Shown here one piece after another: positions 23,391-59,881 of a stretch of 64,000 nucleotides of DNA; position 1 is the first letter of the stretch; each line of letters begins with the position of its first letter. Source of the stretch: Euphorbia lathyris (lineage: Eukaryota; Streptophyta; Magnoliopsida; Malpighiales; Euphorbiaceae). The position numbers and the translations under genes were made by a program. The stretch lies in assembly GCF_963576675.1 (NCBI RefSeq), contig NC_088911.1, positions 131,009,929 to 131,073,928 on the forward strand, given 5' to 3'. The notes below the pieces were generated by a model. The model was not told the origin of the DNA. It did no database searches and saw only the letters and a list, made by a program, of their open reading frames with translations.

Positions 23391-23726
23391 TGTTAATTTC
23401 AGAAGAGAACAAGTTGCAATTTCAGACACTCTGTTTTTGATAGTGATTACAGAGAACAAATAGATAGATAGATTATAGTGAAATAGATAAAACTCTCTCG
23501 TTCTAGAGAGGTACTTCATTTCTATTTATACTAAACTAAAATATCTTGTACAGTACATGACTTCTACAAACTTCTACTTTCTTGACTCTTCTACAAACTT
23601 CTAACAACTAACCATAATTAACTTTCAAAGAGTGAAATATCATAAACTAAAGTTTACAAACATTAAGAACAAAACATACATTTTAATTAAATACAAAAAT
23701 AGAACAAAGTTCTCAATTTTGTAACA
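23391..23726 (-). repeat. 3' LTR of the copia element
   Basis: 336 bp, identical by eye to 27779-28114. The pol reading frame crosses the polypurine tract and stops 14 bases inside this LTR. Confidence 0.95.
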
Positions 23727-26874: not shown

Positions 26875-26880
26875 CTTTTT

Positions 26881-27777: not shown

Positions 27778-27778
27778 T

Positions 27779-28114
27779 TGTTAATTTCAGAAGAGAACAA
27801 GTTGCAATTTCAGACACTCTGTTTTTGATAGTGATTACAGAGAACAAATAGATAGATAGATTATAGTGAAATAGATAAAACTCTCTCGTTCTAGAGAGGT
27901 ACTTCATTTCTATTTATACTAAACTAAAATATCTTGTACAGTACATGACTTCTACAAACTTCTACTTTCTTGACTCTTCTACAAACTTCTAACAACTAAC
28001 CATAATTAACTTTCAAAGAGTGAAATATCATAAACTAAAGTTTACAAACATTAAGAACAAAACATACATTTTAATTAAATACAAAAATAGAACAAAGTTC
28101 TCAATTTTGTAACA
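27779..28114 (-). repeat. 5' LTR of the copia element
   Basis: 336 bp, identical by eye to the other LTR. It carries a TATA-like box and begins and ends with the short inverted repeat TGTTA/TAACA. Confidence 0.95.
27911..27918 (-). promoter_or_regulatory. Putative TATA box in the 5' LTR
   Basis: The minus strand reads TATAAATA within GTTTAGTATAAATAGAAATG. It is about 130 bases upstream of the PBS, a fitting place for the LTR promoter. Confidence 0.6.

Positions 28115-39226: not shown

Positions 39227-39293
<67 letters not shown>
39227..39293. repeat. TA microsatellite, left target flank of MULE A
   Basis: About 67 bases of alternating A and T end directly at the element terminus GGGGAGGGATCAAGTGAG. 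Confidence 0.95.
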
Positions 39294-39296
<3 letters not shown>

Positions 39297-39370
39297 GAGG
39301 GATCAAGTGAGAACCCTCCCTTAGGTGAGGAGACTTTCATAGGTGAGAACCAATTAAAACTATGCCGTTT
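39294..39370 (+). repeat. MULE A left terminal region (transposase end)
   Basis: It has GTGAGAAC at two positions (39308 and 39342 regions), separated by 'cttaggtgaggagactttc'. The outermost sequence matches the outer end of B in inverted orientation (GGGGAGGAATCAAGTGAGAA). Confidence 0.85.
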
Positions 39371-39469
39371 TGGTCATTCTACAAAACACCTGCTATTCCA
39401 ATCAACAAATCGCGCAAATCACTCACAGTAAAATCACGATAAAAAAACGCTCAAATCCCTCACATCTTC

Positions 39470-39590
39470 TCCATCATCGTTCTTCATCATCGTTCTTCAT
39501 CAGCGATCTTCATCATCGTTCTTCATCAGCGATCTCCATCATCGTTCTCCATCATCGTTCTCCATCATCGTCAATTAGATCGACCTCCTT
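39470..39590 (+). repeat. 15-bp 'CATCATCGTTCTTCA' minisatellite
   Basis: Seven to eight units alternating CATCATCGTTCTTCA / TCAGCGATCTTCA forms lie in the 5' leader of the transposase gene. Element B has a different short array at the equivalent place (59570-59615). Confidence 0.8.
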
Positions 39591-39812
39591 CCTCATCGTT
39601 CCGTCATTAAACACTCCAAAAATAATCTGAAATCGCAAATCAGATTAAGAAAAAACGATCTACAATCAAAGAAATAACATCAATCAGGTAATTTTATCTC
39701 CAACAACTAGAAATGAATATTAAATTGTGTTCTGTTTTTTATGTTTATAATTATTCAGAAATTGCTTAAATCTCAAACAGATTGGAAATCATTCAGATTC
39801 TATTCCGAAACA

Positions 39813-42800
39813 ATGGAATTGCATGAAATAATAGACAATGATCTACAGGAGAATGATGATAACCATGAAATTTCCCTGTCCTCAACTATTGAAAGAGGTA
39901 CATGTGTTCTTCATAATTTCTCTGTTCTTCATAATCTAAAAAATCTTGTTCTAAATAATTGTTCATGTGTTCTATAGATAATAGTACATATTATTCGTTT
40001 TTTTATTTATAATTAGTTGTAAAAATTGTTGAAAAAATAAAATTGAGTATATTGAAATATAGAGTTCACTACGTTCTTCAAACTGTACCTCATGTTCTAA
40101 ACAATTGTTCATATGTGCTATATATTATCACATATGTTCCAAAATTGCACTTAAATGCAGTGTCAAATGAAGAGCAGCCAAATGATTCTTCCACTACAAT
40201 TATATCCTACACTCCACAAGTAGAAATTGTGCTGACTTCTGGAGGAACAAAAGAATGGAAGCCATGTTGCTCTCCGGAAAAAATACCTATTGTAGGAACA
40301 AAATTTTATACTATTGATGAGGGTATTGAATTTTACAAAGCATATGCCACTGAAGCAGGATTTAATATTAGAAAATCTAAAGTTAAAGAAAGAAAGAACA
40401 CAAATGTTGTGATTTTTCAATACTGTTTGTGCAATAAAGCAGGCCATAAGCAGAAAAAAATGTTGAAGATACTGAAGGACAAAAACCGAGAAGAAGATTA
40501 ATCACACGTGTTGGATGCGAAGCACAAATTGTTTTAAAGTACTGCAATGATAGAAAATATATTGTCTATCGTTTAAAAGAGGAACATACACATCCACTTT
40601 ACAGTCCACGATGTATGAAATTTCAAAAACAGGGAAGAAAACTGACAATACTACACAAAAAGTTGATTGTTGATAATTCTAAGGTGAGTCATATTCTAAA
40701 TTTACTTTCCTAACAACATCTACAATGTTTTCAAATTGTATTTACTTTCTTTATAAAATCTGTTCATGTGTTTTGTGTAGATGAATGTCGGACCCGTAAG
40801 AACATACAGACAAATAAAAGAAAAAGTTGGATCATACAACAATGTAGGAGCATTTAAGTAGGATTTCAAAAACTTCCACAGAGATTTAAAGGCTTACATT
40901 TATGAGTCAGATGCCCAAATGTTTATTGACATTTTCAGCAAGAAAAAACTTCTATAGTCTGCTTTTTTTTCAACTTTGATATGGATGAAGACGATCATCT
41001 CTGCAGAGCTTTATGGGCAGACCCCATTTGTAGAAAGAATTATGCTCTATTTGGTGATATGGTATCTTTTGACACAACATACCAAACAAACAGGTATTAT
41101 ATTACATGTACCAATTTCTTATTGCAAAGTTCTAAATATTTATTGGCATGTTCTAATATCTTATTGGCATGTTCTAAAATCTTATTCTTATATTCTTAAA
41201 AAAAATTCTTATTTACAAATATTTGTATATTATTTCCACAGATATAATAACATGATCTTTGGCCCCTTTACTAGAGTAGACCACCACAAAAAATGTGTTA
41301 CGTTCGCTGTTTGTTTCATTGCTAAAGAAGATATTGCATCATTTGAGTGGGTTTTCAAAACGTTTCTTAACGCAATAGGAAGCAATGAACCTACATGCTT
41401 AATAACAGATCAAGATCCAGCAATGAAGATTGCAATAAATTTTTTTTTCCAAAAAACAGAACATAGATTCTGCATGTGGCACATTATGAAAAAGATGAAT
41501 GATAAATCAGGTAAGTCTTCTAAAGCTTTGTTTACAATTAAAATTTTTACTGCTTGATTGTTCTACTATATGTTTTGATCAGGTATTAAATTGTATTTTC
41601 CAATATATTATTGGCATGTTAAAAATATTTGTATATTATGAAGATACTTACTGGTTTTTTTAATAGGTCGTGCAATTATGCAAGAAACCAATTTCTTAAA
41701 AAGGATTCAACTAATTGTCTGGAGTGTTGAGATTGAACTTGAAGAATTTGATGAAAAATGGAAAGCAGTCATTTCAGAGTTTAATTTGGAAAAACATGAA
41801 TGGCTATGTCAAATATTTGAAATCAGAAAAATATGGATTCCAGCGTACTTCAGGGACTTATTCCTAGGAGGAATTATGAGAACTACATCAAGGTTAGAGA
41901 GTGAGAACAACTTTTTCACTGCTTTTACAAATTCTCATTTAAGTCTTGTAGAATTTTATTTGAGATTTGATAGTGCAATGGATGCACAAAGGCATAACCA
42001 AGCTCACAATGACAATGATGCCAAACATAAAAGACCTGTATGCAAAACACCAATGAGTATTGAAACACATGGAGCTGATGTTTATACAACTACTGTCTTT
42101 TATGAGTTTCAGGAAGAGGTTTATAATGGTTCTTTCTTTTGTGGAATAGACAGATTCTATAAACAACCTCCTTTCGAAATTTACACTATCAAAGAGCAAA
42201 GGACATCAAAAAACTTTCAGGTTATGTACAACAGCATTGAAGACGAAACAAAATGTTCATGCAAAAAGTTTGAAAGACAAGGCTTACCATGTAGACACAT
42301 GGTGTGGGTTTGGAAGGCAAAAATGCTTGAATCAATTCCTAACAGGTATGTGCTTAACAGATGGACTACATTAGCAACAAGTCAAAAAAACATCAATCTG
42401 CACGGAAATCTTATGGAAGAATGTGCTGCTACAATTGAGAAGAAAACATTGCTGAATCAACTATGGTCAGAGATTAATGTTTGTGTCTATTTAGCTCAAG
42501 GTAATGAGGAAAATATAAAGGATCTTGTGAAGAAATTTCAAGGAATCAGAATGGATTTAGAAGCTAACATCACTCAAAAAGACACTGAGAAAAACAGAAC
42601 TCTTACAAAAAATCAAGACATTGAAATGTTGATTGGAACTAGTGTACCAACTGAAATTAATGTCAAAGCACAAAAAATATCAAAGAACAAAGGTACAAGT
42701 GTACATATTCCAAAAGGAAACAGTGATAAAAGATTGAAGAGTGAAAGAGAGAAAGTTGTTGAGGAAAACCAGAAAAAAAGAGGTTATGTAGAGTCTGTAA

Positions 42801-42835
42801 ACAGCTTGCTAACCATGATAACAGAAACTGTCTAG
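39813..42835 (+). pseudogene. MULE A transposase, FAR1/FHY3-type
   Basis: Exons by GT-AG borders and comparison with B: 39813-39897, 40161-40682, 40781-41093, 41242-41510, 41667-42835. Domains in order: FAR1 DNA-binding zinc region (GIEFYKAYATEAGFNIRKS, FQYCLCNKAGHK, then EEHTHPL with the H-x-H); MULE transposase domain (VSFDTTYQTN first Asp, GPFTRVDHHKKCVTFAVCF, LITDQDPAMK second Asp, RFCMWHIMKK, TTSRLESENNFF probable Glu); SWIM zinc finger (CSCKKFERQGLPCRHM). The C-terminal part is Lys/Glu-rich and may be coiled. When intact it would bind the element ends and cut and rejoin DNA in the nucleus. Lesions: 1-base loss at about 40459, TAG at 40859-40861 and 40955-40957. The 3' exon (385 codons) is open. 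Confidence 0.87.
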
Positions 42836-43655
42836 AAAAAGAGAACTAATCTCTTATATTATTTAGAACATATGATATATTTTTTAGAACATATAATACA
42901 TGTTTTAGAACAACAATTTAATCTTTCCAATATACAATTTATTGTCACAGAATTATTTTTTTTCTATGTAAGAAGCTGAAAATTTGTTATATTTATTTCT
43001 CTAAATTTTGTTATTTTTTATTCCTCTATCTTTTTACCCGTATTTCATTCAATGACATAATTATCATATTTCAAAGTATTATAAGTATAATAATTATTTC
43101 ATGTTCCTCTATCTTTTTATCTATATTCCATCCAATTTATGACGTGTGCCATAATTATCATATTTTAAGTATTATAAATATGATCATTATGACATGTATC
43201 ATAAATCTTGATGACAAAATGAATCTAACATGTTTATAGTGGATATAAACATGTATAGCAGTAAAATTTAACTTCAAGCTTCTCATGCTATTCTGATGAA
43301 TTTCCATATGATTACACATTTTGTTAAACAAGCCTCTAAGCTGCACACCTTTCCACTCTAAACAAATATATCCAATCTACACTTCATTGCTATTATCAAA
43401 ATCGTGTATGTTCCAAAAAATATGTTTTATGTTCCAAATAATATGTCTTATGTTCTAACATATATAACATGTTAAAAAATAAAACACAAACTTTGCCAAC
43501 AGAAACTTCTACAATATATTTTACAAAAATTATAATAACTACCCCATATATATTACAAATTATAACTAACTGAACTAATAATACTTGTACAAAAAATATT
43601 CTAAAATTCTAAAATACAATGCTAGAAATATTTACCGCAATTACATAATATAAAA
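42836..43655. other. Spacer between convergent genes of MULE A
   Basis: AT-rich, with repeated 'TTTTAGAACATATGATA'-like motifs (42860-42915) and 'atgttctaaaa'/'atgttccaaa' motifs (43405-43470). A 'gacgtgtgccataattatca' / 'gacatgtatcataaatc' duplication lies at 43140-43210. No gene is seen. Confidence 0.6.
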
Positions 43656-46600
43656 TTATTTTATTTGTTCATTCTTCCATTTTAACGCATTCTCATTAAC
43701 AGCAGCAACTTCTTTGTTTCCAGAATCTGACAAAATCCTCCAACAGTACTCAACTCTAAAATTCTTCAACTGATCAACCTACAATATTACAAAATCAATA
43801 TTACTAACATTCTCAAAATAATAACATCAGCCTATCATAAAAAAGATTTAAAAAAAACTCACAATGTTATCTCCAACTCCAATATCCCATTTATTAACAT
43901 CTTGTCCAAAATATAATTGCATATGCTTCATAAGGAAAACACCACACTCATCATTGTTGGTTGTGTCTTTCCACTTCAACTTCAAATGTCTTGCACTATA
44001 AGCACTGATATCATTCAAACACTCAGGGTTTTCTCTTTTAATATAAAGTGAATATGCTTTCACCTGGAAAACATAAAACAACATCTTATCAATATTAAAA
44101 CATATCATCAACTATTCAGAATATACAGTTAGTTTTTGCGAACATGGCAATAAATATATAGAACACAATTACAAAACTAAAAAACAGTTGAGTAATATTA
44201 CCAAAGCCTTTGCAAAACCCTTATATTTACTAGAAGGTTGTACACCTTTCTCAAGAGCCTTGTTATCAATAACGTCTATCTTTCCAGTAAAATGGTTGAT
44301 AACAAAAAGATAGAAATGTGCAGCATAAACAACCGGAAAGAACACCTAAAAAGATAAACCATTAGCAATCATAATAATTTCAAAAAAAATTACAGTAAAA
44401 CACAATTTACTTTTAATATAATTACCAAGTGATAACTCTGTAAACTATCTACTTTAGCCTTACGAAGTTCATAACTAATCCTCTCAAAAAAAGCATTGTG
44501 TCTTTCGCTGTACTTAGTAGTTCCAGGAACTCCATTATCAGTACATAGTAACGCCTATACAAAAATACAACATTCATATTAATATAATCCAATTTCTTTT
44601 TAACAAAAAAAAAATAAATATCAAAAAGTAAAAACACATACAAATGGTACAGTAGAGAAGAAGAATCTATGCATAGTAGTTTGACCCCTGCTCTTCCTTT
44701 CACAATTCAATATTCAAGACCACGCATCAACAATATTACAAACCAAATGATTCTTTCCTGACAAGGTCATAATCTCCTCTCTATTGATTGTGGACAAACA
44801 ATCACTATACAACAACTCACTTCAAAAAAAGCAAACAGAATAAAATAAAAACAATAAGTATATCTTAAAGAAAATTCAAATTAACACAAACAACATTCAA
44901 TTAAGATCTTACTATGGGTCTTTTTTACTTTCAGATTCAACTCACTTCAGTCATTCATGTATCTTTTTTACTTTCAGCTTTGTTCTCATTAACAACTTCT
45001 TCTTTCCCTCCTTCACTTTGAGTAACTGGATCTTCATTGCCTCGAGTATATTTACTCCACAAACTCTTGATCACATTACCCATCTCAACGCTTGTACCAT
45101 CTTCACCAAAAACAACATTAGCTTCTCTCAACATACAGTACATTTCATTAACTTTAGAACCCAGTTCTTTAGCTAATGATTGGAACTTAGTAAGAAATTC
45201 CTGCATATATAAATCCATAATAAAAAACAGGGCAAGTTATAAATAATAGTAAGCATGTTCTAAAATTTAATAAGCATATTCTAAAATTTAATAAGAATGT
45301 TCTAAAATTTAAAAACAAAGGGAAAGCTGTAATAACGTACAAAAATTTCTGCTGGTCCACTAGAAGAAGCTTCTCCACATTCCTTCCTATTGCCTCCTTC
45401 AGCATCTTGATTATCTTCATTCCTATTCGCTGCTTCTCTTTGCAAATTTCCTTCATCTCCATCCATACTTTCTCTTACCAAATTTTCTCCTACCAATATT
45501 CTCTTTAACACAATCCCACTTCCAAATCCCCTCAACTTCTCCAATACCATCCTCTTTTGAATTCGTTCTTTATTCCAAACAGATATCAATGGATAATCTC
45601 TTGGATTAACAACATTAGCTCGTTGAAGCCTATCAAAATAACTTATCTAGAAAAAAATAACAAAAATGAACAAGTTATACACAAATTAAAAAATAAACAA
45701 CCAACAAATATTGTCAAACACATAATCAAAAAAAGAAAATTATACTTACCAACAAGAAAGGAAGGGGGCTTGTGAAAAAAGTAGGACTCCTCTTCCAATC
45801 ACTGACAGAATCTAACAAATGCTTATATGCAAAAGAACACCAGTCCAGATTTGCAATCTCATTAACATTCCGACAACTATAAAGAAATTTATAGTTCATA
45901 GTCTGGTTCTTGGTTGAACGAATACAACAATTCACCGCACAGAATACGAAATGCAACAAAAACTCATCACACAATGGTTTCGTCTTCAGATCATTCAACA
46001 TAGCAATCACAGTACTATTAATTGGACTTCCACTCTCAAGTCCAAAATAAGACCTCCATTGAGCAAAAAAATCTGAACAATCATCTTCCCCAACATCTTG
46101 TGGCTCCTCAATCTCTACACCTCCACAAGGCAAGCCATAAACAGCTTGAAAATCTTCCTTAACAAACTTCAACTCTTCACTATTGTCCAGCATAAGGCTA
46201 CACCTATCTACATTAAAACTATTGACAAGCCTTTCACAAAAAGAAGCATTATGAACATCTAAACTTAGATCCAAAAAACCACCAAATCCAATCCGTTTAA
46301 TTGCATCCTTATGAGTCTCCGGAATATCATTAAGAATACCCATAAACTGTTTAGGAAGTATTCTTTGACCAAGAGCAGTCTTATTCCTTTTAGAAATATT
46401 TTCATCATCACCTACACTAACAACCTTCTTCCGTTTCTTTAAAAACCTAGAAGCAACAGATAGGTTTCTTGCAAACTTAACTTTCTTTACCTTCTTAGCA
46501 TCAACATCTTCCTTTAAAGCATCAACAGAAGGTTCAGAAACTTGAGAAGAATCAAAACCTTTGCTAGATAGACTCCTTGTTTGCCGCCTAAACGTACATT

Positions 46601-46946
46601 TGCTAGATTGACTACTTGTTTCCTGCTTCAACGCACCTTTAATAGATTGACTCCTTGTTTGCCGTCTCAACAAATTATTAGACGGAACGACATAACTAGA
46701 GAGCAAATCATTGTCAGCAGGAATGGTTGACATTGAAGGTCTTTTAGAAATGGAAGGTCTTTTAGAAGTCCTCTTAAATCTTCTAGATGTCTGTCTTTTT
46801 GCACTTATAGCTTCAACAGGAACAACACTCTTACCTTTTTTCTTATCTTTCATATCTTCATCAGAACAATATTCTTCAATAATTTCATTCAGCAAATTCT
46901 TATCAATCACATTACTTGGAAAAATCTCTTCTCCATTGCCGCCCAT
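43656..46946 (-). pseudogene. MULE A Ulp1-like gene, internally deleted
   Basis: Exon 1 (46946-45750, 399 codons) opens MGGNGEEIFPSNVIDKNLLN, is rich in Arg/Ser repeats (RRQTRSQSIKG, FRRQTRSLSSKG) and has a conserved second half (FMGILNDIPETHKDAIKRIG, PLCDEFLLHFVFCAVNCC). Exon 2 is 45659-45345; exon 3 about 45203-44930. The frame then meets 'aaagtaaaaaaga' and jumps to sequence that in B lies 2.1 kb further on (53411), so the exons carrying the GHW...LDP...Q...C protease domain are missing. The last exons remain: VFFPVVYAAHFYLFVINHF, KIDVIDN, TTNNDECGVFLMKHM (a second C48-like domain) and KWKNEQIK at the end. It probably makes no active protease. Confidence 0.8.
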
Positions 46947-48100
46947 TTTCTACAAAAAAAACAGAACATATACTAAACATTTTAGAACAAACAAATGAAA
47001 ATATAGAACAAATATAGAACAAAACATAAAACAAATGCAATAACTCATCAACAAAACGTAAACTAATGTAACAAAGCAATAACTCATAAACAGAACATAT
47101 GTTCAATATTTTAGAACAAAAACCATACAAAATAATACTGCAACAAACTTTGAAAGTTCAAACAAGCAAAACCCCCAAACAAACCAATATCTCATTAACA
47201 GAACAATTGTTCAAAATTTTAGAACAAACACATGCAAATATAGAACAAACATAGAACAAAAATAAAATCATTTTGAAACTCACTAAATTTCAAAATCAAA
47301 CCACAACAAACTTACAGATTTCAAACAAATGAAAAACCTACAAATCAAAAAGCAACAAAAATAAGGTATCAAAACTTAAAAATAGAGAACAAACATAAAA
47401 CAAAACAATATACCATTAACAGAACATACGTTCATAATTTTAGAACAACAAACACAAAATATAAAACAATAATAAAACAATATAAAAACATTCTCAAACT
47501 GAATACATTTGAATACAAAAAACATAGAAAAACATACAGAAACTTCTTCATAAAGTTCAAACAAACAAAACCCTAGAAAATAAAAAAAACTACAGAAAAT
47601 CGCTATCAAAATCAACGAAGAACATAAAACAACAAAATAAACCAAGAACATAAAGCAACAAACCTCGTTCAGACGAACAAATTCACGGAAAAAAACGAAA
47701 AAGCGAAAAAATGCAAACAAAAAAAATAAAAAAACTATAGAAAATCGCTCTCAAAATCAACGAAGAACATAAAACAACAAAATAAACGAAGAACATAAAG
47801 CAACAAACCTCGTCCAGATGAACAAATTCACGGAAAAAAATGAAAAAGCGAAAAAATACAAACAAAAACAATGAACAGAAAAAACGAAGAAGATAAGCAA
47901 TTAACCAAAGTTCAGAGGAACAAATACACGGTATAATTGATGAAATACAGAAACCAAATCTTCTATCAAAACCAAAGTTGATCGACTGTAGAAATGAGAG
48001 AAGATAGAAATGACGAAGGAGTCGAGGAAGAAGTCGAGGAACGAAGAGACACAGCTTTTCAACTTCAAAGAGACGCGCCACATCCAACCTAAAACTCACC
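46947..48100 (-). other. MULE A protease gene leader with motif arrays
   Basis: AT-rich 5' region upstream of the minus-strand gene. 'catatgttcaatattttaga' and 'attaacagaacaattgttca' forms recur at intervals of 100-250 bases. The block 47560-47700 is repeated at 47700-47840 ('aatcgctatcaaaatcaacg', 'aagaacataaagcaacaaac'), a tandem duplication of about 160 bases. ORFs here are artefacts of composition. Confidence 0.6.
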
Positions 48101-48109
48101 GTTTTTGCT

Positions 48110-48201
48110 AAAATTAATACCCCAAAACGACGTAGTTTTAGGTGGTTCTCACCTAAGGAAGTGCCCTCAACTAAGAAAGGGTTCTCACAAGAGCCATCTC
48201 C
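48110..48201 (-). repeat. MULE A right terminal region (protease end)
   Basis: The reverse complement begins GGAGATGGCTCTTGTGAGAA and contains GTGAGAAC again in 'taggtgagaaccacc', followed by 'aaactacgtcgttttggggt'. It mirrors the left end of B. Confidence 0.88.
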
Positions 48202-48215
48202 TATATATATATATA
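48202..48215. repeat. 14-bp TA repeat at the junction of A and B
   Basis: Seven TA units separate the two elements; the sequence CTCC-(TA)7-GGAG is the centre of the large inverted arrangement. Confidence 0.95.
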
Positions 48216-48300
48216 GGAGAGGGCTCTTGTGAGAACCCTTTCCTAGGTGAGAACTCACCTTAGGTGAGAACCACCCAAAACTACGTAGTTTTAGGGGTAT
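48216..48300 (+). repeat. MULE B left terminal region (protease end)
   Basis: It has GTGAGAAC, then AGGTGAGAACTCACC, then TTAGGTGAGAACCACC: three GTGAGAAC units spaced by about 17-20 bases, followed by 'aaactacgtagttttagggg'. Confidence 0.88.
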
Positions 48301-49371
48301 TTCATTAACCAAAACGTTGTGTTTTGGTAATAAGTTGCGCGCGTTTCTGAAGTTGAAGAGTTCAGTCGCTTCGTTCCTCGACTTTGTTCCTCGTCTTCTT
48401 GCTCATTTCTATCTTCTGTCATTTTTCTTCTAATCTAGCGTCGATCAACTTTGGTTTTGATAGAAGATTTGCGCTCTGTATTTCATCGATTCTACCGTGT
48501 ATTTGTTCCTCTTAACTCTGGTTAGTTGCTTATCTTTTTCGTTTTTTCTGTTCATTGTTTTTGTTTGCATTTTTTCGTTTTTTGGTTTTTTTCTGTGAAT
48601 TTGTTCGTCTGAACGAGGTTTGTTGCTTTATGTGTTTCGTTTATTTTGTTGTTTTATATTCTTTGTTGATTTTGAGTTCGATTTTCTATAGTTTTTTGAT
48701 TTTCTAGGTTTTCGTTTGTTTGATCTTTATAAAGAAGTTTTTGTATGTTTTTCTTTGATTTTTGTATTCAAATGTATTGAGTTTGAGAATGTTTTTATGT
48801 TGTTCTGTTATTGTTTTATATTTTGTATTTGTTGTTCTAAAATTATGAACGTATGTTCTGTTAATGAGATATTGTTTTGTTTTATGTTTGTTCTCTATTT
48901 TTACTTTTTGAGACCTAATTTTTGTAGCTTTTTGTTTTGTTGGTTTTTCATTTGTTTTGTAGCTTTTTGTTTTGTAGGTTTTTCAAAATGATTTTATTTT
49001 TGTTCTATATTTGCATGTGTTTTGTTCTAAAATATTGAATAATTGTTCTGTTAATGAGATATTGGTTTGTTTGGTGTTTTCGCTTGTTTGAACTTTCAAA
49101 GTTTGTTGCGGTATGATTTTGTATGTTTTTTGTATTCAAATGTAGTTAGTTTTAGAACGTTTTTGAGTTTGTTCTATTTTTGTTTTATGTTTTTGCATTT
49201 TTTGTTCTAAAATATTGATCATATGTTCTGTTGTTGAGTTATTGCTTTGTTAAATTACTTTATGTTTGGTTGATGAGTTATTCCATTTGTTTTATGTTTC
49301 GTTGTATATTTGTTTTATATTTGCATTTGTTTGTTCTAAAATATTGAGTATATGTTCTGTTTTTTTAGAAA
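48301..49371 (+). other. MULE B protease gene leader
   Basis: Counterpart of 46947-48100. It is T-rich with recurrent 'TTTGTTCTAAAATATTGA' followed by 'TGTTCTGTTAATGAGATATT'. No coding function is assigned; the open frames mirror T-rich composition. Confidence 0.6.
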
Positions 49372-52300
49372 ATGGGCGGCAATGGAGAAGAGATTTTTCC
49401 AAGTAATGTGGTTGATCAGAATTTGCTGGATGATATTATGGAAGAATATGGTTCTGATGAAGATAAGAAAAATAAGAAGAAAGGTGAAACTGTTGTTCCT
49501 GTTGAAGATAGAACTGTAAAAACACATACATCTAGAAGATTTAAGAGGACTTCTAAAAGACCTTCAATTTCTAAAAGACCTTCAATGCCAGCCATTCCTG
49601 CTGACAATGATTTGCTCTCTAGTTATGTCGTTCCGTCTAATAGTTTGTTGAGGCGGCAAACCAGGAGTCAATCTATCAAAGGTGAGTTGATTCGGCAAAC
49701 TAGTAGTCAATCTAGCAAAGGTACATTTAGGCGGCAAACAAGGAATCTATCTAGTAAAGGTTTTGATTCTTCTCAAGTTTCTGAAGCTTCGGTTGATGCT
49801 TTAAAGGAAGATGTTGATGCTTTAAAGGAAGATGTTGATGCTAAGAATGTAAAGAAAGTGAAGTTTGCAAGAAACTTGTCTGTTGCTTCTAGTTTTTTAA
49901 AGAAGAGGAAGAAGGTTGTTAGTGTAGGTGATGATGAAAATATTTATAAACGGAATAAGGTTGCTCTTGGTCAAAGAATACCTTCGAAACAGTTTATGGG
50001 TATTCTTCATGATATTCCGGAGACTCATAAGGATGCAATTAAGCGGATTGGATTTGGTGGTTTTTTGCATCTAAGTTTAGATGTTCATAATGCTACTTTT
50101 TGTGAAAAACTTGTGAATAGTTTTAATGTTGATAGGTGTAGCCTTATGCTGGATAATAGTGAAGAATTGAAGTTTGTTAATGATGATTTTAAGGCAGTTT
50201 ATGGCTTGCCTTGTGGAGGTGTAGAGATTGAGGAGCCACAAGATGTTGGGGAAGATGAGTCTTCAGATTTTTTTGCTCAATGGAGGTCATATTTTGGACT
50301 TGAGATTGGAAGTCCAATTAATAGTACTGTGATTGCTAAGCTGAATGATCTGAAGACGAAACCATTGTGTGATGAGTTTTTGTTGCATTTTGTATTCTGT
50401 GCTGTGAATTGTTGTATTCGTTCTACCAAGAACCAGGCTATGAACTATAAGTTTCTTTATAGTTGTAGGAATGTTAAGGAAATTGCAAATCTGGATTGGT
50501 GTTCTTTTGCATATAAGCATTTGTTGGATTCTGTCAGTGAATGGAAAAGGAGTCCTACTTTTTTTACAGGTCCCCTTCCTTTCTTGTTGGTAAGTGTAAT
50601 TTTCTTTTTTTGATTATTTGTTTTATAATATTTGTTTGTTGTTTATTTTTTAATTTGTGTATAACTTGTTTTTGTTATTTTTTGTAGATAAGTTATTTTG
50701 ATAGGCTTCAACGAGCTAATGTTGTTAATCTAAGAGATTTTCCACTGATATCTGTTTGGAATAAAGAACGAATACAAAAGAGGATGACTTTGGAAAAGAT
50801 GAGGGGATTTGGAAGTGGGATTGTGTTAGATAGAATAGTGGTGAGAGAAAATTTGGTAAGAGAAAGTATGGATATGGATGAAGGAAATGTGCCAAGAGAA
50901 GATAATCAAGATGCTGAAGGAGCCAATAGGAAGGAATGTGGAGAAGCTTCTTCGAGTGGACCTGCTCAAATTTTTGTACGTTATTACTTCTTTATCTTTG
51001 TTTTTAAATTTTAGAACATGCTTATTAGATTTTAGAACATGCTTAATATTATTTATAACATGCCCTGTTTTTTATTATGGATTTGTATATGCAGGAATTT
51101 CTTGCTAATGTTGTTTTTGGTGAAGATGGTACAAGTGTTGAGATGTCTAATCTGATCAACAGCTTGTGGAGTAAATATACTCGAGGCAATGAAGATCCGG
51201 TTAGTCAAAGTGAAGGAGGGAAAGAAGAAGTAGTTAATGAGAACAAAGCGGAAAGTAAAAAAGATTCAGGAATGACTGGAGATGTTGATTGTGATTTGTC
51301 TAGTCAAGATAGTCATCCTTATTTTAATTCTGAATTTTTTGATGAGATAGATAGGTTGGTTGAAAGAATTAAAAGAGAGAAGAAAGATCAGAGAGAGAGA
51401 GAGAGTAAAACTCCAATGAAGAAATCTGAAGAAAAATATTCTTGTCCGAATTTTAATTTGTTGAGTCAAGAGTTGCATGATTTTGTTGGAACTGAAGGTG
51501 GATCTACACAAGCAAAAATTTTGTTGAGAAATCGGATGGTGCATATATGAAGAATAATTCTGATCCTGAAGTAATGTATGTGAAAATAATTATTTTATAT
51601 TTTGTTTATGTTTTTTAATGTTTGTTATATTTTAGAACATATGCTTTATTGTTTAGAACATATGCTTTATTGTTCAGAACATACATTTTATGCTTCTGAT
51701 TATGTTATTCCTATTTGATTTTTTAAGTTTGTTTGTTTTGTCAACAGGTTTGTTGTTGATGATGAAGTTGATAACATGGTGATAGAAGATGCGGTGGATG
51801 TAGATTTGCAAGCTTTGCCTAGAAATATTCCAGATAAGTTACAGATATTGTGCAAATGGGCAAATGTGGAGTTGGTGAAAGGGAATTTTGTTAGCTATGT
51901 TGTTGGTGAAGAGTTGTTTGGACATTCTACTAAAACATTATTGTTGAGGCAGGATATATATTCTATGGTTCATATGGAAGAGATAACTTGCAACGTTATA
52001 ATTTTCTACATGAGGTATTTTGTTTTTGAAATGTTATAGTTTTATTTATATTAGTTGTAGTTGATTCTTACTATGTTCTTTTTTGTTTTTATGTAGCTAC
52101 TTGTTTAATTTGTTGAAGAAAAGAGGAATGGAGAAATTGTTTTATTTTGTTGATCCTCATTACACTTATTCCATTGGAAGTTCTAAAACAGTAAGCCAGC
52201 GCTCATATGAGTTGATGAATCAATTGAAGATGTCCATGATGGATAAGTCTATCTTTTTGTGTCCATATAATACAGGGTATGATTGTTTTAGTTATTTTAT

Positions 52301-54598
52301 TTAATATTTTTTAAGTAATTTTCTTTATTTTGAAATAATAATAGTATTATTTTCAGTGGACACTGGACGTTGTCAATTATCGATTTGAAGAAATTTAGAG
52401 CTTATTGGTTGGATCCGTTGAGAAGACGTTTGCCAAAGGGAGATGTATGGATTGATGTTGTGAATGAGTATGTTTTTTTGTTTGTATTTTGTTTTATAGT
52501 TTATTTGATATATAACTATGTTTGAAGATTAAGATGATGTACCTGATTTTAATGATTTTTATTTTAACAGGGCTCTTCAATTATACTCTGAGAATGATGA
52601 AGTTAAAGTCAAATGGACTGCACTTTTGGTAATTCTTAACTTGTATATTTGTTTTGTACATGTGTGAAATTTTTTAGAACGTAAAGGTTAGGTTGATGTA
52701 CATTATTTTAATGTTGTGCTTGTTGTGTTGTACGGTGTGCCAGAGCAAAAAGATCACAAAACATGTGGTTTTTTTTTGTAATGCGGTTCATGAGAGATAT
52801 TGTGATGGACAAGGATTTGAAGTTTGCTGAAAAGGTATAGTGCATTTATAATAAAGGTTTTGTTGTATTATTTTGAAATTATAGTTTGTTTTATGGTTTT
52901 AATTTTTTTTTTATTTTATAGTGGAAAAGTAGGTGTGGTATGAAATATAGTCAATTTGATTTGGATGAAGTTCGGGAAGAGTTTGTTGAAGAAGTGTTGA
53001 GAGTAGGAGTTAATGGGCTTGATGAATGTTTTGCTGATGTTGTTTCTGATAGTAATGCAATGTAAGTGATATTTAAGAATTTTTCTAATTTAGATCATGT
53101 GTATATGTGTTTGGAACATATGATTTATATTTTAGAACATGAGAATAGAATTTAAGAGTATGTGGTTTCTGTTTTTGAACCTGGATAATTTTGTCCCCTT
53201 TTGTTATTTTCTTTCTGTTGTTAATAGGAGAGTACGCAAAGATGTAGTTGAGGAAGTGCAAGAAGTTGGTGTTGGAAATCGTTCAAAAAGGATTTCAAAG
53301 TTGCCTGGATATTTACAGTCTCCATTTTTGCTTGAGTCTGAGCGTTTACTAAAGAATATGCTTAGTTCGCGGAGAATGTTGGTTGAATATGCTTTTTGTA
53401 ATGAAGACCCACAGTAAGATCTTAATTGAATGTTGTTTGTGTTAATTTGAATTTTCTTTAAGATATACTGATTGTTTTTATTTTATTCTGTTTGTTTTTT
53501 TGAAGTGAGTTGTTGTATAGTGATTGTTTGTCCACAATCAATAGAGAGGAGATTATGAGCTTGTCAGAAAGCAATCATTTGGTTAGTAATGTGGTTGATG
53601 CGTGGTCTCGAATATTGAATTCTAAAGAGAAGAGCAAGGGTTCAACTTCTGTGCATAGATTCTTCTTCTCTACTCTACCATTTGTATGTGTTTTTACATT
53701 TTGATATTTTTTTTTGTTAAAAAGAAATTGGATTATATTAATATGAATGTTGTATTTTTGTATAGGTGATACTGTGTACTGATAAGGGAGTTCCTGGAAG
53801 TATTAAGTACAGCGACAGACACAATGCTTTTTTTGACAGAATTAGTTATGAACTTTGTGTTTTACTTTAATTATTGTTTGTAATTATTATGATTGCTAAT
53901 GGTTTATTTTTATAGGTGTTCTTTCCGGTTGTTTATGCTGCACATTTCTATCTTTTCGTTATCAACCATTTTATTGGAAAGATAGACGTTATTGATAACA
54001 AGGCTCTTGATAAAGGTGTAAAAGTTCATAGTAAATATAAGGGTTTTGCAAAGGCTTTGGTAATATTACTCAACTGTTTTTTAGTTTTGTTATTGTGTTC
54101 TATATATTTACTGTCACGTTCAGAAAATCTAAGTGTATGTTCTGAATAGTTGATGATATGTTTTAATATTGATAAGTTGTTGTTCTATGTTTTTCAGGTG
54201 AAAGCATATTATTTTTATATTAAAAGAGAAAGCCCTAATTGCTTGAATGATATCAATGCTTATGCTTCAAGACGTTTGAAGTGGAAAGACTCAACCAACA
54301 ATGATGATTGTGGTGTTTTCCTTTTGAAACATATGGAATCCTATTTTGGACAAGATGAGGCTGGATGGGATATTGGAGTTCGAAAGAACAATGTGAGTTT
54401 TTTTTAAAATCTTTTTTATTATAGGCTGTTGTTATTATTTTGATAATGTTAGTAATAATGAATGGGATATTGTAGGTTGATCAGTTGAAGAATTTTAGAA
54501 TTGAGTACTGTTGGAAGATTCTGTCAAATTCTGGAAACAAAGAAGTTGTTGGTGTAAATGAGAAGACATTAAAATGGAAGAATGAACAATTAAAATAA
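49372..54598 (+). pseudogene. MULE B Ulp1-like gene with two C48-like domains
   Basis: About 15 exons. Exon 1 (49372-50589) opens MGGNGEEIFPSNVVDQNLLD and has three RRQTRSxSxKG-like repeats and a duplicated VDALKEDVDALKEDVDAK. Exons 2-5 hold EFLANVVFGEDGTSVEM, LQALPRNIPDKLQILCKWAN and YLFNLLKKRGMEKLFYFVDP. The first protease domain (52180-52840) has FLCPYNTG, GHWTLSIIDLKKFRAYWLDP (His, Asp) and QKDHKTCGFF (Gln and Cys six apart). Directly after it a run of nine T shifts the frame before VMRFMRDIVMD. A second domain (53917-54390) has VFFPVVYAAHFYLFVINHF, KIDVIDN and STNNDDCGVFLLKHM, where Ser replaces the usual Gln. The exon ending at about 53850 is cut by a deletion relative to A. C48 proteases cut SUMO or similar modifiers; the target here is unknown. 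As read it is probably inactive. Confidence 0.78.
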
Positions 54599-54850
54599 TT
54601 GTATATTCTGTAATTGATGTAATTATATATGTTAGAACGTAAGACATATTATTTTGGAACATGAAACATATTTTTTAGAACATACACGATTTTGATATCA
54701 GTAATGAAGTGTTTGAAACACATATTTTGAATTAGATTGGATGAAATAGTGGTTTCTTTTTCTGGATGTCATATCTCAGTGTTGAGAAGGAAGGATATAA
54801 TGAGAACCAAATGACATCAGTATGTTCAGCTTCTTACATAGAAAAAAATT
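54599..54850. other. Spacer of MULE B, left of the insertion
   Basis: It has 'tatgttagaacgtaagacat', 'tttagaacatacacgatttt' and a 'ttcagcttcttacatagaaa' motif that occurs again at 56127-56147. No gene. Confidence 0.6.
54843..54850. repeat. Target duplication AAAAAATT, left
   Basis: AAAAAATT at 54843-54850 is repeated at 56041-56048, flanking the foldback element. It is low complexity, so weak alone. Confidence 0.6.
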
Positions 54851-56040
54851 AGGGTAAATTCCAAAAAAAAACCCTGTGGTTTCACCGATTTCCAAATAAA
54901 CCCCTGTGGTTTGTTTTTACCAAAAAAAAGGAGCGTGGTTTACGCCGTTACCCGAAAAACGGAAAATGGGTTAACACCGTTAAAAAGCTGACGTGGCACA
55001 TGGGTAAAATTGGAAAAATGATTTTTTTTTTTTTTTTATCTTTTATTTATTTTTCTCTCCTCCTTCTTCTTCCTTCTTCTTCTTCTTCTTTCCTTCTTCC
55101 TCCTCCTTCTTTTTTTTTCTTCTATTTTTTTTTAAAAATTTCCGATACCCCTGGAAATTTCCGAAATCTGGAAATTTCCAGATTTCTTCGAAAATTCCTA
55201 TCTCCCGCCGACAACCACTCCGGCCACTTAATTTCATCATTTTCGTCCATCTCCTCTTTCAATTTCCTAATCCCCATCGTCTTCGCCATTTTCATCTTCT
55301 CCATCGCAATATCGGTTCAAACTCCAAGTCATCAAGTCGTTAAATCTTTTCACGCTTGGGATAAAGGCGAACACCAAGTTGAGGACCTGCTAGAACCAAG
55401 CACAACCGGGAATTCTACTTACAGCAGTAAGAAAACGATACCCAAACCTTCTCTTTAACCCATTAGAACGAGCTTATAACAGTAAGATAGTACTCGTTAG
55501 GCTCAGGTAAACTTCTGTTTTTTCGTGAACCAACGAGTTCAGTCGTCTTGCGTCACGAGGCACATAGCTGGGCGGAAGCTCAAACCAAACAACGACATGG
55601 GATGATTTCCCAAGCTATTGGTGCGGAGTTCCATCTCTCTTTGCCTGAAGCTCTCTTACTTGCTCTCTTCCTTGATAGTTTGGACCAAATCTGGAACAGA
55701 AGCTGGAATTGACCAATGGCACTAATCTGGGAATTTTCGATTAAAAAAAAGAAGAAAAAGAGGAAGGAGAAGAGAGAGAGGAAGAAGAAGGAGAGAAGAA
55801 GAAGAAGAAGAAGGAAGGAAGAAGAAAGAATGAAGAAGAAGGAAAGAAAAAAAGAGAAAATTAAAAAAAATTAAAAAAATTCGGAATTTCCAAATTTACC
55901 CCTCATTTTTAACATTGTTAACCCATTTTCCGTTTTTCGGGTAACGGCGTAAACCACGCTCCTTTTTTTTGGTAAAAACAAACCACATGGGTTTATTTGG
56001 AAATCGGTGAAACCACACGGTTTTTTTTTAGAATTTACCC
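54851..56040. mobile_element. Foldback element in MULE B, possible captured DNA
   Basis: The left terminus AGGGTAAATTCCAAAAAAAA followed by CCCTGTGGTTTCACCGATTT is mirrored at the right ('aaatcggtgaaaccacacgg', ending 'gaatttaccc'). The arms also share 'cgtggtttacgccgttaccc'. It has the same plan as 12621-14134: CCTGTGGTTT ends, a pyrimidine arm (55025-55130), a purine arm (55740-55870) and GGAAATTTCCAG palindromes. The centre (about 55195-55735) is GC-richer and not repetitive, so may be captured host sequence. Confidence 0.82.
55195..55735 (+). other. GC-richer interior of the foldback, possibly captured
   Basis: In one plus frame it reads SSFNFLIPIVFAIFIFSIAI (a hydrophobic segment), SVQTPSHQVVKSFHAWDKGE and HQVEDLLEPSTTGNSTYSSK, ending at 55458. 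That would suit a signal-anchor N-terminus and a following soluble stretch. The rest ('acgaggcacatagctgggcg' and onwards) shows no long frame. No family is recognised. It has no partner elsewhere in the window. Confidence 0.35.
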
Positions 56041-56189
56041 AAAAAATTATTGTATGTTCTAAAAAAAACATGTTATATCCACTTTGTCATCAAAATAGTG
56101 AACCATATAAGAAAATATTTATGTTTCAGCTTCTTACATAGAAAAAAAATTATTGTATGTTCTAAAACAAGTATCATACGTTCTAAACC

Positions 56190-59100
56190 TTATATCATAT
56201 GTTCTAAACAATATATGAGATCAGTTGTTCTCTTTTTCTGGACAGTTTCTGCTATCATGGTTAGCAAGCTGTTTACAGACTCTGCATAACCTCTTTTTTT
56301 CTGGTTTTCCTCAACAGCTTTCTCTCTTTCACCCTTCAATCTTTTATCACTATTTCCTTTTGGAATATGTACACCTGTACCTTTGTTCTTTGATATTTTT
56401 AGTGTTTTGACATTAATTTCAGTTGGTACACTAGTTCCAATCAATATTTCAATGTCTTGATTTTTTGAAAGAGTTCTGTTTTTCTCAGTGTCTTTTTGAG
56501 TGATTTTAGCTTCTAAATCCATTTTGATTCCTTGAAACTTCTTCACAAGATCCTTTATATTTTCCTCACTACCTTGAGCTAAGTAGACACAAACATTAAT
56601 CTTTGACCATAGTTGATTCAGCAATGTTTTCTTATCAATTGTAGCAGGACATTCTTCCATAAGATTTCCTTGCAGATTTATTTTTTTTGACTTGTTGCTA
56701 ATGTAGTCCATCTGTTAAGCACATACCTGTTAGGAATTGATTCAAGCATTTTTGCCTTCCAAACCCACACCATGTGTCTGCATGGTAAGCCCTGTCTCTC
56801 AAACTTCTTGCACGAACATTTTGTTTCGTCTTCAATGGTGCTGTACATAACCTAAAAGTTTTTTGATGTCCTTTGCTCTTTGATAGTGTAAATTTCGAAA
56901 GGAGGTTGTTTATAGAATCCGTCTATTCCACAAAAAAAGAACCATTATAAAGCTCTTCCTGAAACTCATAAAAGACAGTGGTTGTATAAACATCAGCTCC
57001 ATGTGTTTCAATACCCATTGGTGTTTTACATACAGGTCTTTTATGTTTGGCATCATTGTCATTGTGAGCTTGGTTATGCCTTTGTGCATCCATTGCACTG
57101 TCAAATCTCAAATAAAATTCTACAAGACTTAGATGAGAATTTGTAAAAGCAGTGAAAAAGTTGTTCTCACTCTCTGACCTTGATGTAGTTCTCATAATTC
57201 CTCCTAGGAATAAGTCCCTGAAATACGCTGGAATCCACATTTTTCTGATGTCAAATATTTGACATAGCCATTCATGTTTCTCCAAATTAAACTCTGAAAT
57301 GACAGCTTTCCATTTTTCATCAAATTCTGCAGGTTCAATCTCAACACTCCAAACAATTGGTTGAATCCTTTTTAAGAAATTGGTTTCTTGCATAATTGCA
57401 CGACCTATTAAAAAAAGGAGTTAGTATCTTGATAATATACAAATATTTTGAACATGCCAATAATATATTGGAACATATAATGTAATACCTGATCAAAACA
57501 TATAGTAGAACAGTCAAGCAGTAAAAAATTTAATTGTAAACAAAGTTTTAGACGGCTAACCTAATTTATCATTCATCTTTTTCATAATGTGCCACATGCA
57601 GAATCTATGTTCTGTTTTTTGGAAAACATTTTTTATTGCAATCTTCATTGCTGGGTCTTGATCTGTTATTAAGCACGTAGGTTCATTGCTTCCCATTGCG
57701 TTAAGAAACGTTTTGAAAACACACTCAAATGATGCAATATCTTCTTTAGCAATGAAACAAGCAGCGAACGTAACACATTTTTTGTGGTGGTCTACTCCAG
57801 TAAAGGGGCCAAAGATCATGTTATATCTGTGAAAATAATATACAATAATTTGTAAATAAGAAAACTTATTAAGAATATAAGAATAAGATTTTAGAACATG
57901 CCAATAAGATATTGAAATTCATTAATAAATATTTAGAACATTGCAATAAGAAATGGGTACATATAATATAATACCTGTTTGTTTGGTATGTTGTGTCAAA
58001 AGATACCATATCACCAAATAGAGCATAATTCTTTCTACAAATTGGGTCTGCCCATAAAGCTCTACAGAGATGATCGTCTTCATCCATATCAAAGTCGAAA
58101 AAGAATGCAGACCATAGAAGTTTTTTCTTGTTGAAAATGTCAATAAACATTTGGTCATCTGACTCATAAATGTAAGCCTTTAAATCTCTGTGGAAGTTTT
58201 TGAAATCCTGCTTAGATGCACCTACATTGTTGTATCCTCCAACATTTTCTTTTATTTGTCTGTATGTTCTTACGGGTCCAACATTCATCTACAGAAAACA
58301 CATTAAGAGATTTTATAAGGAAAGTAAATACAATTTGAAAAATTGTAGATGTTATGTTCTATGTTTCACTGTGAACTGTTAGAAATGTATAAGTAAAGAT
58401 GTTTGTAAACATTTTAAATTTAGAATATGACTCACCTTAGAATTATCAACAATCATCTTCTTGTGTAGTATCGTCAGATTTCTTCCCTGTTTTTTAAATT
58501 TCATACAGCGTGGACTGTAAAGTGGGTGTGTATGTTCCTCTTTTAAACGAAAGACAATATATTTTCCATCATTGCAGTACTTTAAAACAATTTGTGCTTG
58601 AAATCCAACACGTGTGATTAATCTTCTTCTTGGTGTTTGTCCTTTAGTATCTTCAACAATTTTTTTCTGCTTATGGCCTGCTTTATTGCACAAACAGTAT
58701 TGAAAAATCACAACATTTGAGTTTTTTCTTTTTTTAACTGTAGATTTTCTAATATTAAATCCTGCTTCAGTGCATATGCTTTGTAAAATTCAATACCCTC
58801 ATCAATAGTATTAAATTTTGTTCCTACAGTAGGTATTTTTTCTGGAGAGCAACATGGCTTCCATTCTTTTGTTCCTTTAGGAGTCAGCCCAAATTCTACT
58901 TGTTGAGTGTAGGATATAATTGCAGTAGAAGAATCATTAGGCTGCTCTTCATTTGACACTGCATTTAAGTGGAATTTTTGAACATATGTGATAATATATA
59001 GAACATATGAACAAATGTTTAGAACATTAGGTACAGTTTGAAGAATGTATTGAACTATATATTTCAATATACTCAATTTTATTTTTTCAACAATTTTTGG

Positions 59101-59296
59101 AACTAATTATAAATAAGAAACGAATAATATGTACTATTATCTATAGAACACATGAACAATTATTTAGAACTAGCTTTTTTAGATTATGAAGAACGTTAAT
59201 TGCGAATGTACCTCTTTCAATAGTTGAAGACAGAGAAATTTCATGGTGATCAACATTCTCCTGTAGATCATTGTCTATTATTTCATGCAATTCCAT
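56190..59296 (-). pseudogene. MULE B transposase, FAR1/FHY3-type
   Basis: Mirror copy of the gene in A. It starts METLHEI-like at 59296 (MELHEIIDNDLQENVDHHE) and has FAR1, MULE and SWIM domains in order. Exon 3 (58288-57970) is intact here: MNVGPVRTYRQIKENVGGYN, KQDFKNFHRDLKAYIYES, LLWSAFFFDFDMDEDDH, VSFDTTYQTNR. Exon 4 has LITDQDPAMK and RFCMWHIMKK; exon 5 has TTSRSESENNFF. Lesions: 1-base loss at about 58765 within the FAR1 region; 1-base loss near 56930 (after YNGSFF); TAG at about 56855 before the SWIM finger; frameshift at about 56690. The final stop used in A is a sense codon here, so the frame runs to 56190. None of these lesions is shared with A. Confidence 0.87.
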
Positions 59297-59569
59297 TGTT
59301 TCGAAATAGAATCTGAATGATTTCCAATTTGTTTCAGATTTAAGCAATTTCTGAATAATTATAAACATAAAAAACAGAACACAAATTAATATTCATTTAT
59401 AGTTGTTGGATATTACATTACCTGATTGATGCTATTGAGATCAATTGTTTTGAATCTTTTTCTTTGACTGTAGATCGTCTTCTTATTCCTCGATTTTGTT
59501 AATCTGATTTGCGATTTCCACTGATATCTGTATTTTTGAATGATAGAGCCATGAGGAAGGAGGTTGATC

Positions 59570-59615
59570 TAATTAAGGAAGGAGGTTGATCTAATTAAGG
59601 AAGGAGGAACGATGA
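59570..59615. repeat. 20-bp tandem repeat in the transposase leader of B
   Basis: 'aaggaaggaggttgatctaa' followed by 'tt' occurs twice, plus a partial third unit. Confidence 0.85.
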
Positions 59616-59754
59616 TGAGGAAGATCTGAGGTTGAATGATAGAAGAATGATGAAGATCGAAGTGAGGGAGGATTTCAACGATCGTTGATCGTGATTTTGC
59701 AAGAGTGAATGACGTGATTTTGTAATTGGAGTAGCTGGTGGTTTTTTAATGTAT

Positions 59755-59845
59755 AAAACTACGTAGTTTTGGGTGGTTCTCACCTAAGGTGAGTTCTCAC
59801 CTAAGGTGAGTTCTCACCTAGGGGAGGGTTCTCACTTGATTCCTC

Positions 59846-59848
<3 letters not shown>
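59755..59848 (-). repeat. MULE B right terminal region (transposase end)
   Basis: The reverse complement begins GGGGAGGAATCAAGTGAGAA, then CCCTCCCCTAGGTGAGAAC, then two units of TCACCTTAGGTGAGAACT, then CCACCCAAAACTACGTAG. The near-palindrome TCACCTTAGGTGA is repeated. Confidence 0.9.

Positions 59849-59881
<33 letters not shown>

What the first reader, a model, noticed from the sequence alone, without database searches (positions are those of the whole stretch)
39294..59848. Two Ulp1-carrying Mutator-like elements arranged head to head
Elements A and B have mirrored gene order and meet at CTCC-(TA)7-GGAG. Their protease-side ends face each other and their transposase-side ends face out, so the 20.5-kb block is a giant imperfect inverted repeat with arms of 9-11 kb. 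The outer ends are also an inverted pair (GGGGAGGRATCAAGTGAGAA). The block could therefore move or be recognised as one composite unit, and long double-stranded RNA from it could feed silencing.
Basis: partly seen in the sequence, partly recalled or inferred. Interest (0 to 1): 0.75.

Follow-up and report, generated by a model that had tools for sequence, protein, structure and literature searches.

The report
Paired plant transposons with anti-silencing gene
Two related plant jumping genes sit back to back, probably because both landed in the same TA repeat, and each carries a gene resembling a known factor that lets such elements escape the plant's silencing, together with a matching set of evenly spaced DNA tags.

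Summary
The head-to-head pair is real: element A 39294-48201 and element B 48216-59848, inverted, joined by (TA)7. The arms are 92.9% identical over 6961 well-aligned columns. It is most likely not a composite unit but two members of one FAR1/Jittery-type Mutator-like family that inserted separately into one TA microsatellite. All four ends abut TA tracts, the A/B divergence shows purifying selection (Ka/Ks 0.43), there is no sign of gene conversion, and both TA targeting and microsatellite-linked arrays are published. Both transposase genes look broken, and A has lost part of its protease gene.

The parts
39227..39293 (.). Left flanking TA tract, 67 bp
39294..48201 (+). Element A (8908 bp); strand given is that of its transposase
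39807..42859 (+). Element A transposase gene (FAR1-MULE-SWIM type), several exons; two in-frame stops in 40781-40969 and a frame change near 40970
   Evidence: tblastn with P0013; Pfam MULE and SWIM; stops
43659..46943 (-). Element A VANC-like gene: DUF1985-like exon 45747-46943, C48 domain 2 at about 43851-44345; the part with C48 domain 1 is deleted
40092..40143 (-). Motif array, 2 copies 42 bp apart, element A
41127..41178 (-). Motif array, 3 copies at 21 bp, in a transposase intron of A
42862..42913 (+). Motif array, 3 copies at 21 bp, downstream of the transposase of A
43408..43459 (-). Motif array, 3 copies at 21 bp, between the two genes of A
45255..45306 (-). Motif array, 3 copies at 21 bp, in a VANC-like intron of A
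48202..48215 (.). Junction (TA)7 between the two right ends
   Evidence: DNA hairpin
48216..59848 (-). Element B (11633 bp); strand given is that of its transposase
49375..54595 (+). Element B VANC-like gene: DUF1985-like exon 49375-50592, C48 domain 1 at about 52334-52837, C48 domain 2 at about 53916-54404
   Evidence: fold match to VANC21
51010..51061 (+). Motif array, 3 copies at 21 bp, VANC-like intron of B (counterpart of 45255 in A)
51631..51682 (+). Motif array, 3 copies at 21 bp, VANC-like intron of B; in the part that A has lost
53089..53140 (+). Motif array, 3 copies at 21 bp, VANC-like intron of B; in the part that A has lost
54653..54683 (+). Motif array, 2 copies at 21 bp, between the genes of B
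54852..56040 (.). Nested element in B: 138-nt terminal inverted repeats, 9-bp target duplication (read by eye)
56157..56208 (-). Motif array, 3 copies at 21 bp, downstream of the transposase of B
56211..59302 (-). Element B transposase gene; frame changes relative to A near 56936 and 56702
   Evidence: FAR1 domain in 58379-58786
57890..57941 (+). Motif array, 2 copies 42 bp apart, transposase intron of B
58976..59027 (+). Motif array, 3 copies at 21 bp, upstream part of the transposase gene of B
59849..59880 (.). Right flanking TA tract, (TA)16

Best explanation
A and B are two members of one family of FAR1/Jittery-type Mutator-like elements in a plant, probably a Euphorbia. They inserted one after the other into the same TA microsatellite; the opposite orientation is a matter of chance. 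Each element carries two convergent genes. One encodes a FAR1-MULE-SWIM transposase. The other encodes a VANC-like protein: a DUF1985-like domain followed by two C48/Ulp1-like domains in B, of which A has lost the first. I infer that this protein binds the element-specific, 21-bp-phased TTTAGAACAT arrays in introns and between genes and removes silencing marks from its own family, as VANC proteins do for Arabidopsis VANDAL elements. Shown here: the pair, its flanks, the domains, the fold match, the motif enrichment and the phasing. Inferred: the order of insertion, binding of this motif by this protein, and anti-silencing activity.
Confidence: 0.72

Rival explanations
1. The 21-bp arrays are transposase-binding sites or plain tandem repeats with no link to the VANC-like protein.
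For: Tandem Repeats Finder reports many of them as 21-bp repeats, so local duplication made at least part of them. There are no binding data, and one of 299 letter-shuffled words reaches 40 copies in these A+T-rich elements.
Against: A different word, GTGAGAAC, clusters at the termini (11 of 13 copies within about 75 bp of an element end), where a transposase would be expected to bind. The 21-bp phase recurs at 7 distinct sites by my matching of the 12 arrays, and the spacer is much less conserved than the word. The gene has a VANC-like fold.
Confidence: 0.2
2. The block is one composite element bounded by two left ends that moves or is recognised as a unit.
For: The outer ends are an inverted pair.
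Against: Each element has its own two ends and its own TA flanks; both transposases look broken; nothing else in the window carries these ends.
Confidence: 0.04
3. B arose from A, or the reverse, by a local inverted duplication, with later divergence in place.
For: Same family, adjacent, inverted.
Against: Purifying selection during the divergence (Ka/Ks 0.43), a third copy elsewhere as close to B as A is, complete ends and a TA tract at each end of both elements, no conversion tracts.
Confidence: 0.07
4. The junction is an assembly artefact that joins two separate loci.
For: A quasi-palindrome beside TA repeats is hard to assemble.
Against: The arms are clearly different sequences (7% divergence), so this is not a collapsed or mirrored contig end; the junction is a clean TA tract of the kind this family targets.
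Confidence: 0.05
5. Whatever its origin, the inverted pair now works as a Mu killer-like source of hairpin RNA that silences the family.
For: Precedent in maize (PMC3440606); long inverted arms.
Against: The protease-side genes are divergent from the junction, so read-through over 10 kb or more is needed; 7% divergence between the arms. No RNA data.
Confidence: 0.12

Closest known systems
VANC proteins of Arabidopsis VANDAL elements (VANC21, VANC6; called KIU when Ulp1 is present)
   Same: Element-encoded second gene with a DUF1985-like domain of VANC21-like fold, a Ulp1-type domain as in KIU, and an element-specific short word arrayed in one orientation in introns and other noncoding DNA.
   Different: The transposase is FAR1-type and the ends are inverted repeats, whereas VANDALs are described as non-TIR MULEs with degenerated terminal repeats; the word is TTTAGAACAT, not YAGTATTAY; B has two C48 domains; activity is untested.
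Jittery-like MULEs with ULP genes (melon, grapevine)
   Same: FAR1/Jittery-type transposase plus a ULP-like gene downstream.
   Different: The passages read for grapevine do not mention motif arrays or anti-silencing; the melon paper was not seen.
MuTAnT / AutoMuTAnT (Medicago) and SaTar elements (guayule, rice)
   Same: MULEs in (TA)n microsatellites, AutoMuTAnT with a Jittery-like transposase; SaTar arrays linked by microsatellites without nesting.
   Different: MuTAnT and SaTar elements are mostly short and non-autonomous; here two elements of 9-12 kb with two genes each are linked.
Mu killer (maize)
   Same: Inverted Mutator sequences with same-side ends outward.
   Different: Mu killer is a partial inverted duplication of one element; here two diverged, near-complete elements meet, with no RNA evidence.

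Membership tests
FAR1/Jittery-type Mutator-like element | Transposase with FAR1, MULE and SWIM domains | tested here: met
   MULE 68.1 and SWIM 30 bits in A, FAR1 53.5 bits in B, all above cut-off. That Jittery's transposase has FAR1, MULE and SWIM domains: passage in PMC9569675.
FAR1/Jittery-type Mutator-like element | Terminal inverted repeats | tested here: met
   Both ends of each element share GTGAGAACC-type repeats in inverted orientation, though left and right ends differ in the first 15 bases.
FAR1/Jittery-type Mutator-like element | 9-11 bp target duplication | tested here: inconclusive
   All ends lie in TA tracts, so a duplication cannot be told from the repeat.
TA-microsatellite-targeting MULE | Insertion inside (TA)n | tested here: met
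   Four of four ends abut TA tracts of 67, 14 and 32 bp. Only two copies could be examined.
TA-microsatellite-targeting MULE | Empty (TA)n site in a relative | not testable with these tools
   No plant genome could be searched.
VANC / KIU anti-silencing protein | DUF1985 domain of VANC fold | tested here: met
VANC / KIU anti-silencing protein | Ulp1 (C48) domain, for the KIU type | tested here: met
   Two C48 matches in B, 20.6 and 20.7 bits against a cut-off of 20.7, on typed joined pieces. By eye, domain 1 lacks an in-frame catalytic cysteine and domain 2 keeps His, Asp and Cys.
VANC / KIU anti-silencing protein | Dense, element-specific short motif in noncoding parts of the same element | tested here: met
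   52 copies in A+B and 10 in the other 43.4 kb; 2 of 52 in exons of the approximate map; 1 of 52 with homology-supported exons only. Tested in one window.
VANC / KIU anti-silencing protein | Binding of the motif and loss of DNA methylation | not testable with these tools
   Needs binding and methylation data.
VANDAL (non-TIR MULE) | Degenerate terminal repeats | tested here: not met
   Clear terminal inverted repeats here; so this is not filed as a VANDAL. VANDALs as non-TIR.
Mu killer-like silencer | Fold-back transcript and small RNAs | not testable with these tools
   No RNA data.

The most novel reading that the evidence does not exclude
A FAR1/Jittery-type MULE lineage outside the VANDALs runs its own VANC-type anti-silencing system: a DUF1985-C48-C48 protein reads TTTAGAACAT sites set exactly two helical turns (21 bp) apart in the element's introns, so that neighbouring protein molecules lie on one face of the DNA. 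Where two such elements sit head to head, the divergent VANC-like genes and the paired arrays may form a self-protecting island that offsets the inverted repeat's tendency to be silenced.
Probability: 0.5. Interest if true: 0.68.

Novelty: new variant of a known kind. Interest (0 to 1): 0.52.

Why it matters
Many plant transposons carry a Ulp1-like gene whose role is unknown. Here the gene has a VANC-like fold and the DNA shows a matching, phased motif array, so the anti-silencing idea can be tested outside Arabidopsis and outside VANDALs with one binding assay. It also suggests a way to find such systems from sequence alone: a DUF1985-like gene plus an element-specific word repeated every 21 bp in introns. 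The pair itself is a clear example, with large elements, of how TA-targeting elements stack into inverted repeats.

Tried and rejected
Host-genome search for other copies: four requests not answered. Homologues of the C-terminal part of the VANC-like protein: none at E 0.001 among the 7992 candidates scored, so no second protein with two C48 domains was found. PDB by sequence: nothing relevant for the DUF1985-like part; for C48 domain 2 only a weak match to sentrin-specific protease 7 (E 0.05). NCBIfam: no hit for the two window proteins given, one sub-threshold IS256 hit for P0013. Extra conservation of motif sites between A and B: not significant. Gene conversion between the arms: no sign. 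Local duplication: judged unlikely. A scan for two motifs 21 bp apart gave 26 stretches in bacterial and archaeal genomes and 1 viral contig; not followed up, taken as irrelevant to a plant element. The first Ka/Ks run had two segments in a wrong frame; one search replaces it. Counts that go against uniform constraint: C48 domain 2, Ka/Ks 1.17 over 167 codons; transposase C-terminus, 1 synonymous against 10 replacement changes over 94 codons. The exon map is approximate (drawn by me). Sasaki et al. 2022 (PMC9016345) is not held; what I say of it is recall or comes from review passages. Literature searches list only part of their hits (for example 10 of 176, 15 of 155), so absence from print is not established.
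Full report
WHAT IS THERE. The window holds two related elements in mirror order: A 39294-48201 and B 48216-59848, with (TA)7 between them. The outer flanks are a 67-bp TA tract on the left and (TA)16 on the right. Inverted arms run through the block (25 longest of 160 pairs listed). Identity is 88.4% over all 8488 aligned columns, and 92.9% over 6961 columns without the ends and one unalignable spacer. The outer-end word occurs nowhere else in the window at up to 3 mismatches.

DIFFERENCES BETWEEN THE ARMS. A lacks a 1860-bp stretch of the protease-side gene that B has, with a further 240-bp gap beside it. B carries a nested 1.2-kb element at 54852-56040 with 138-nt terminal repeats and a 9-bp target duplication that I read by eye. 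In A the transposase has two in-frame stops within 40781-40969. In B its reading frame changes relative to A near 56936 and 56702. I infer that neither copy moves by itself. The two inner ends are right ends and the two outer ends left ends. The 281 bases around the junction fold as one DNA strand with z -16.7, so a cruciform is conceivable.

GENES. The transposase has FAR1 (53.5 bits, B), MULE (68.1 bits, A) and SWIM (30 bits, A) domains. Its best database relative is a Euphorbia lathyris protein annotated FAR1-RELATED SEQUENCE 5-like (P0013). Over 505 residues P0013 is 93.9% identical to B and 90.1% to A, while A and B are 92.7% identical. That the host is a Euphorbia is inference. The second gene runs towards the transposase. 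Its first exon of about 400 codons has 12 homologues at E 0.001, the named ones from Bienertia, Chenopodium and Euphorbia. A weak DUF1985 match (20.8 bits, cut-off 35.1) is followed in B by two C48 matches at the cut-off (20.6 and 20.7 bits against 20.7). By eye, C48 domain 1 of B lacks an in-frame catalytic cysteine, and domain 2 keeps His, Asp and Cys in both elements.

HOW THE PAIR AROSE. All four ends sit on TA tracts. Medicago MuTAnT elements, whose autonomous member is Jittery-like, insert in (TA)n (PMC4486113, parts 1 and 2 of 4 read). Guayule and rice SaTar MULEs build uninterrupted arrays linked by microsatellites (PMC5907723, outline, passages and one section). Divergence between A and B shows Ks 0.125, Ka 0.053, ratio 0.43 over 1192 codons, Fisher p 1e-8; by piece the ratio is 0.31 in the DUF1985-like exon, 0.32 in the main transposase part, 1.17 in C48 domain 2, and 10 replacement against 1 synonymous change in the transposase C-terminus. 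Most divergence therefore built up while the lineages were still selected, not as two dead neighbours. The longest identical run is 100 bp, as chance gives (p 0.26), so there is no sign of recent conversion. Two separate insertions explain this best; order and dates are unknown.

THE MOTIF. The five 8-mers most enriched in the elements belong to one word. TTTAGAACAT with up to one mismatch occurs 21 times in A, 31 in B and 10 in the other 43.4 kb; dinucleotide shuffles of A and B give means of 2.6 and 2.8, maxima 7 and 8, in 100 shuffles each. Of 299 letter-shuffled words the mean count in the elements is 3.9 and the largest 40. Two of 52 copies fall in exons of my approximate map, which covers 53% of the elements (p 2e-14); with homology-supported exons only it is 1 of 52 (p 4e-6). 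Same-strand neighbours within 100 bp: 19 of 21 at exactly 21 bp, the other 2 at 42 bp. Random placement gives 0.1 on average and at most 2 in 2000 trials. The core AGAAC occurs in 23 pairs at 21 bp and 10 at 42 bp, against a mean of 0.85 at other distances; the 23 pairs at 21 bp found in the window all lie in the elements. There are 12 arrays, 5 in A and 7 in B, which I match by position to 7 distinct sites. Those I looked at (in both elements, the transposase intron and a VANC-like intron; in B, two more VANC-like introns) lie between plausible GT and AG ends. The spacer varies while the word is kept, but motif sites are not significantly better conserved between A and B than other noncoding DNA. 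The ends carry a different repeated word, GTGAGAAC (11 of 13 copies within about 75 bp of an end), the more likely transposase site.

COMPARISON. VANC21 binds YAGTATTAY motifs arrayed in one orientation in introns, intergenic and terminal noncoding DNA of VANDAL21, and such targets evolve by tandem repetition (PMC5735166, passages). VANC proteins remove methylation and mobilise their elements (PMC10398659, passages). A 2026 review says that Ulp1-carrying VANC genes (KIU) act on motifs of their own group and that the role of Ulp1 is unknown (PMC13317346, passages). I recall from Sasaki et al. 2022, which is not held, that motif sequence, density and helical periodicity set VANC specificity; if so, a strict 21-bp phase is what one would predict. 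The gene and motif here fit that model, but the transposase is FAR1-type and the ends are inverted repeats, so I do not file it as a VANDAL. ULP genes in Jittery-like MULEs are reported for melon and grapevine (PMC2528002, passages and one section). In the rows listed by searches I saw no paper that links such elements to VANC-type motifs; lists were capped and subscription papers are mostly not held.

SILENCING IDEA. Maize Mu killer, with an inverted partial duplication of mudrA, shows that inverted Mutator sequences can silence a family (PMC3440606, abstract and passages). Here the VANC-like genes read outward from the junction, so a hairpin needs read-through. This stays open.

VERDICT. The pair is real and explained by known behaviour. 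The added value is the prediction of a VANC-type anti-silencing module with phased target arrays in a FAR1-type MULE.

Noticed in passing
window 54852-56040: Nested 1.2-kb element inside B with 138-nt terminal repeats (GGGTAAATTCC...) and 9-bp target duplication, enclosing about 0.9 kb of other sequence; may be a gene-carrying MULE.
   Followed up: partly
window 43851-44345 and 53916-54404: C48 domain 2 shows no constraint between A and B (Ka/Ks 1.17) while the DUF1985-like exon of the same gene does (0.31).
   Followed up: partly
window 47577-47872: A 145-bp tandem duplication (94% alike) upstream of the VANC-like gene of A; not reported on the matching side of B.
   Followed up: no
window 39463-39571: 13-bp tandem repeat (CATCGTTCTCCAT, 8.5 copies) near the left end of A; not reported at the matching end of B.
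   Followed up: no
window 8258-11220 and 23713-27780: Long reading frames that look, by eye, like a LINE reverse transcriptase and a Copia-type polyprotein; no domain search was run.
   Followed up: no
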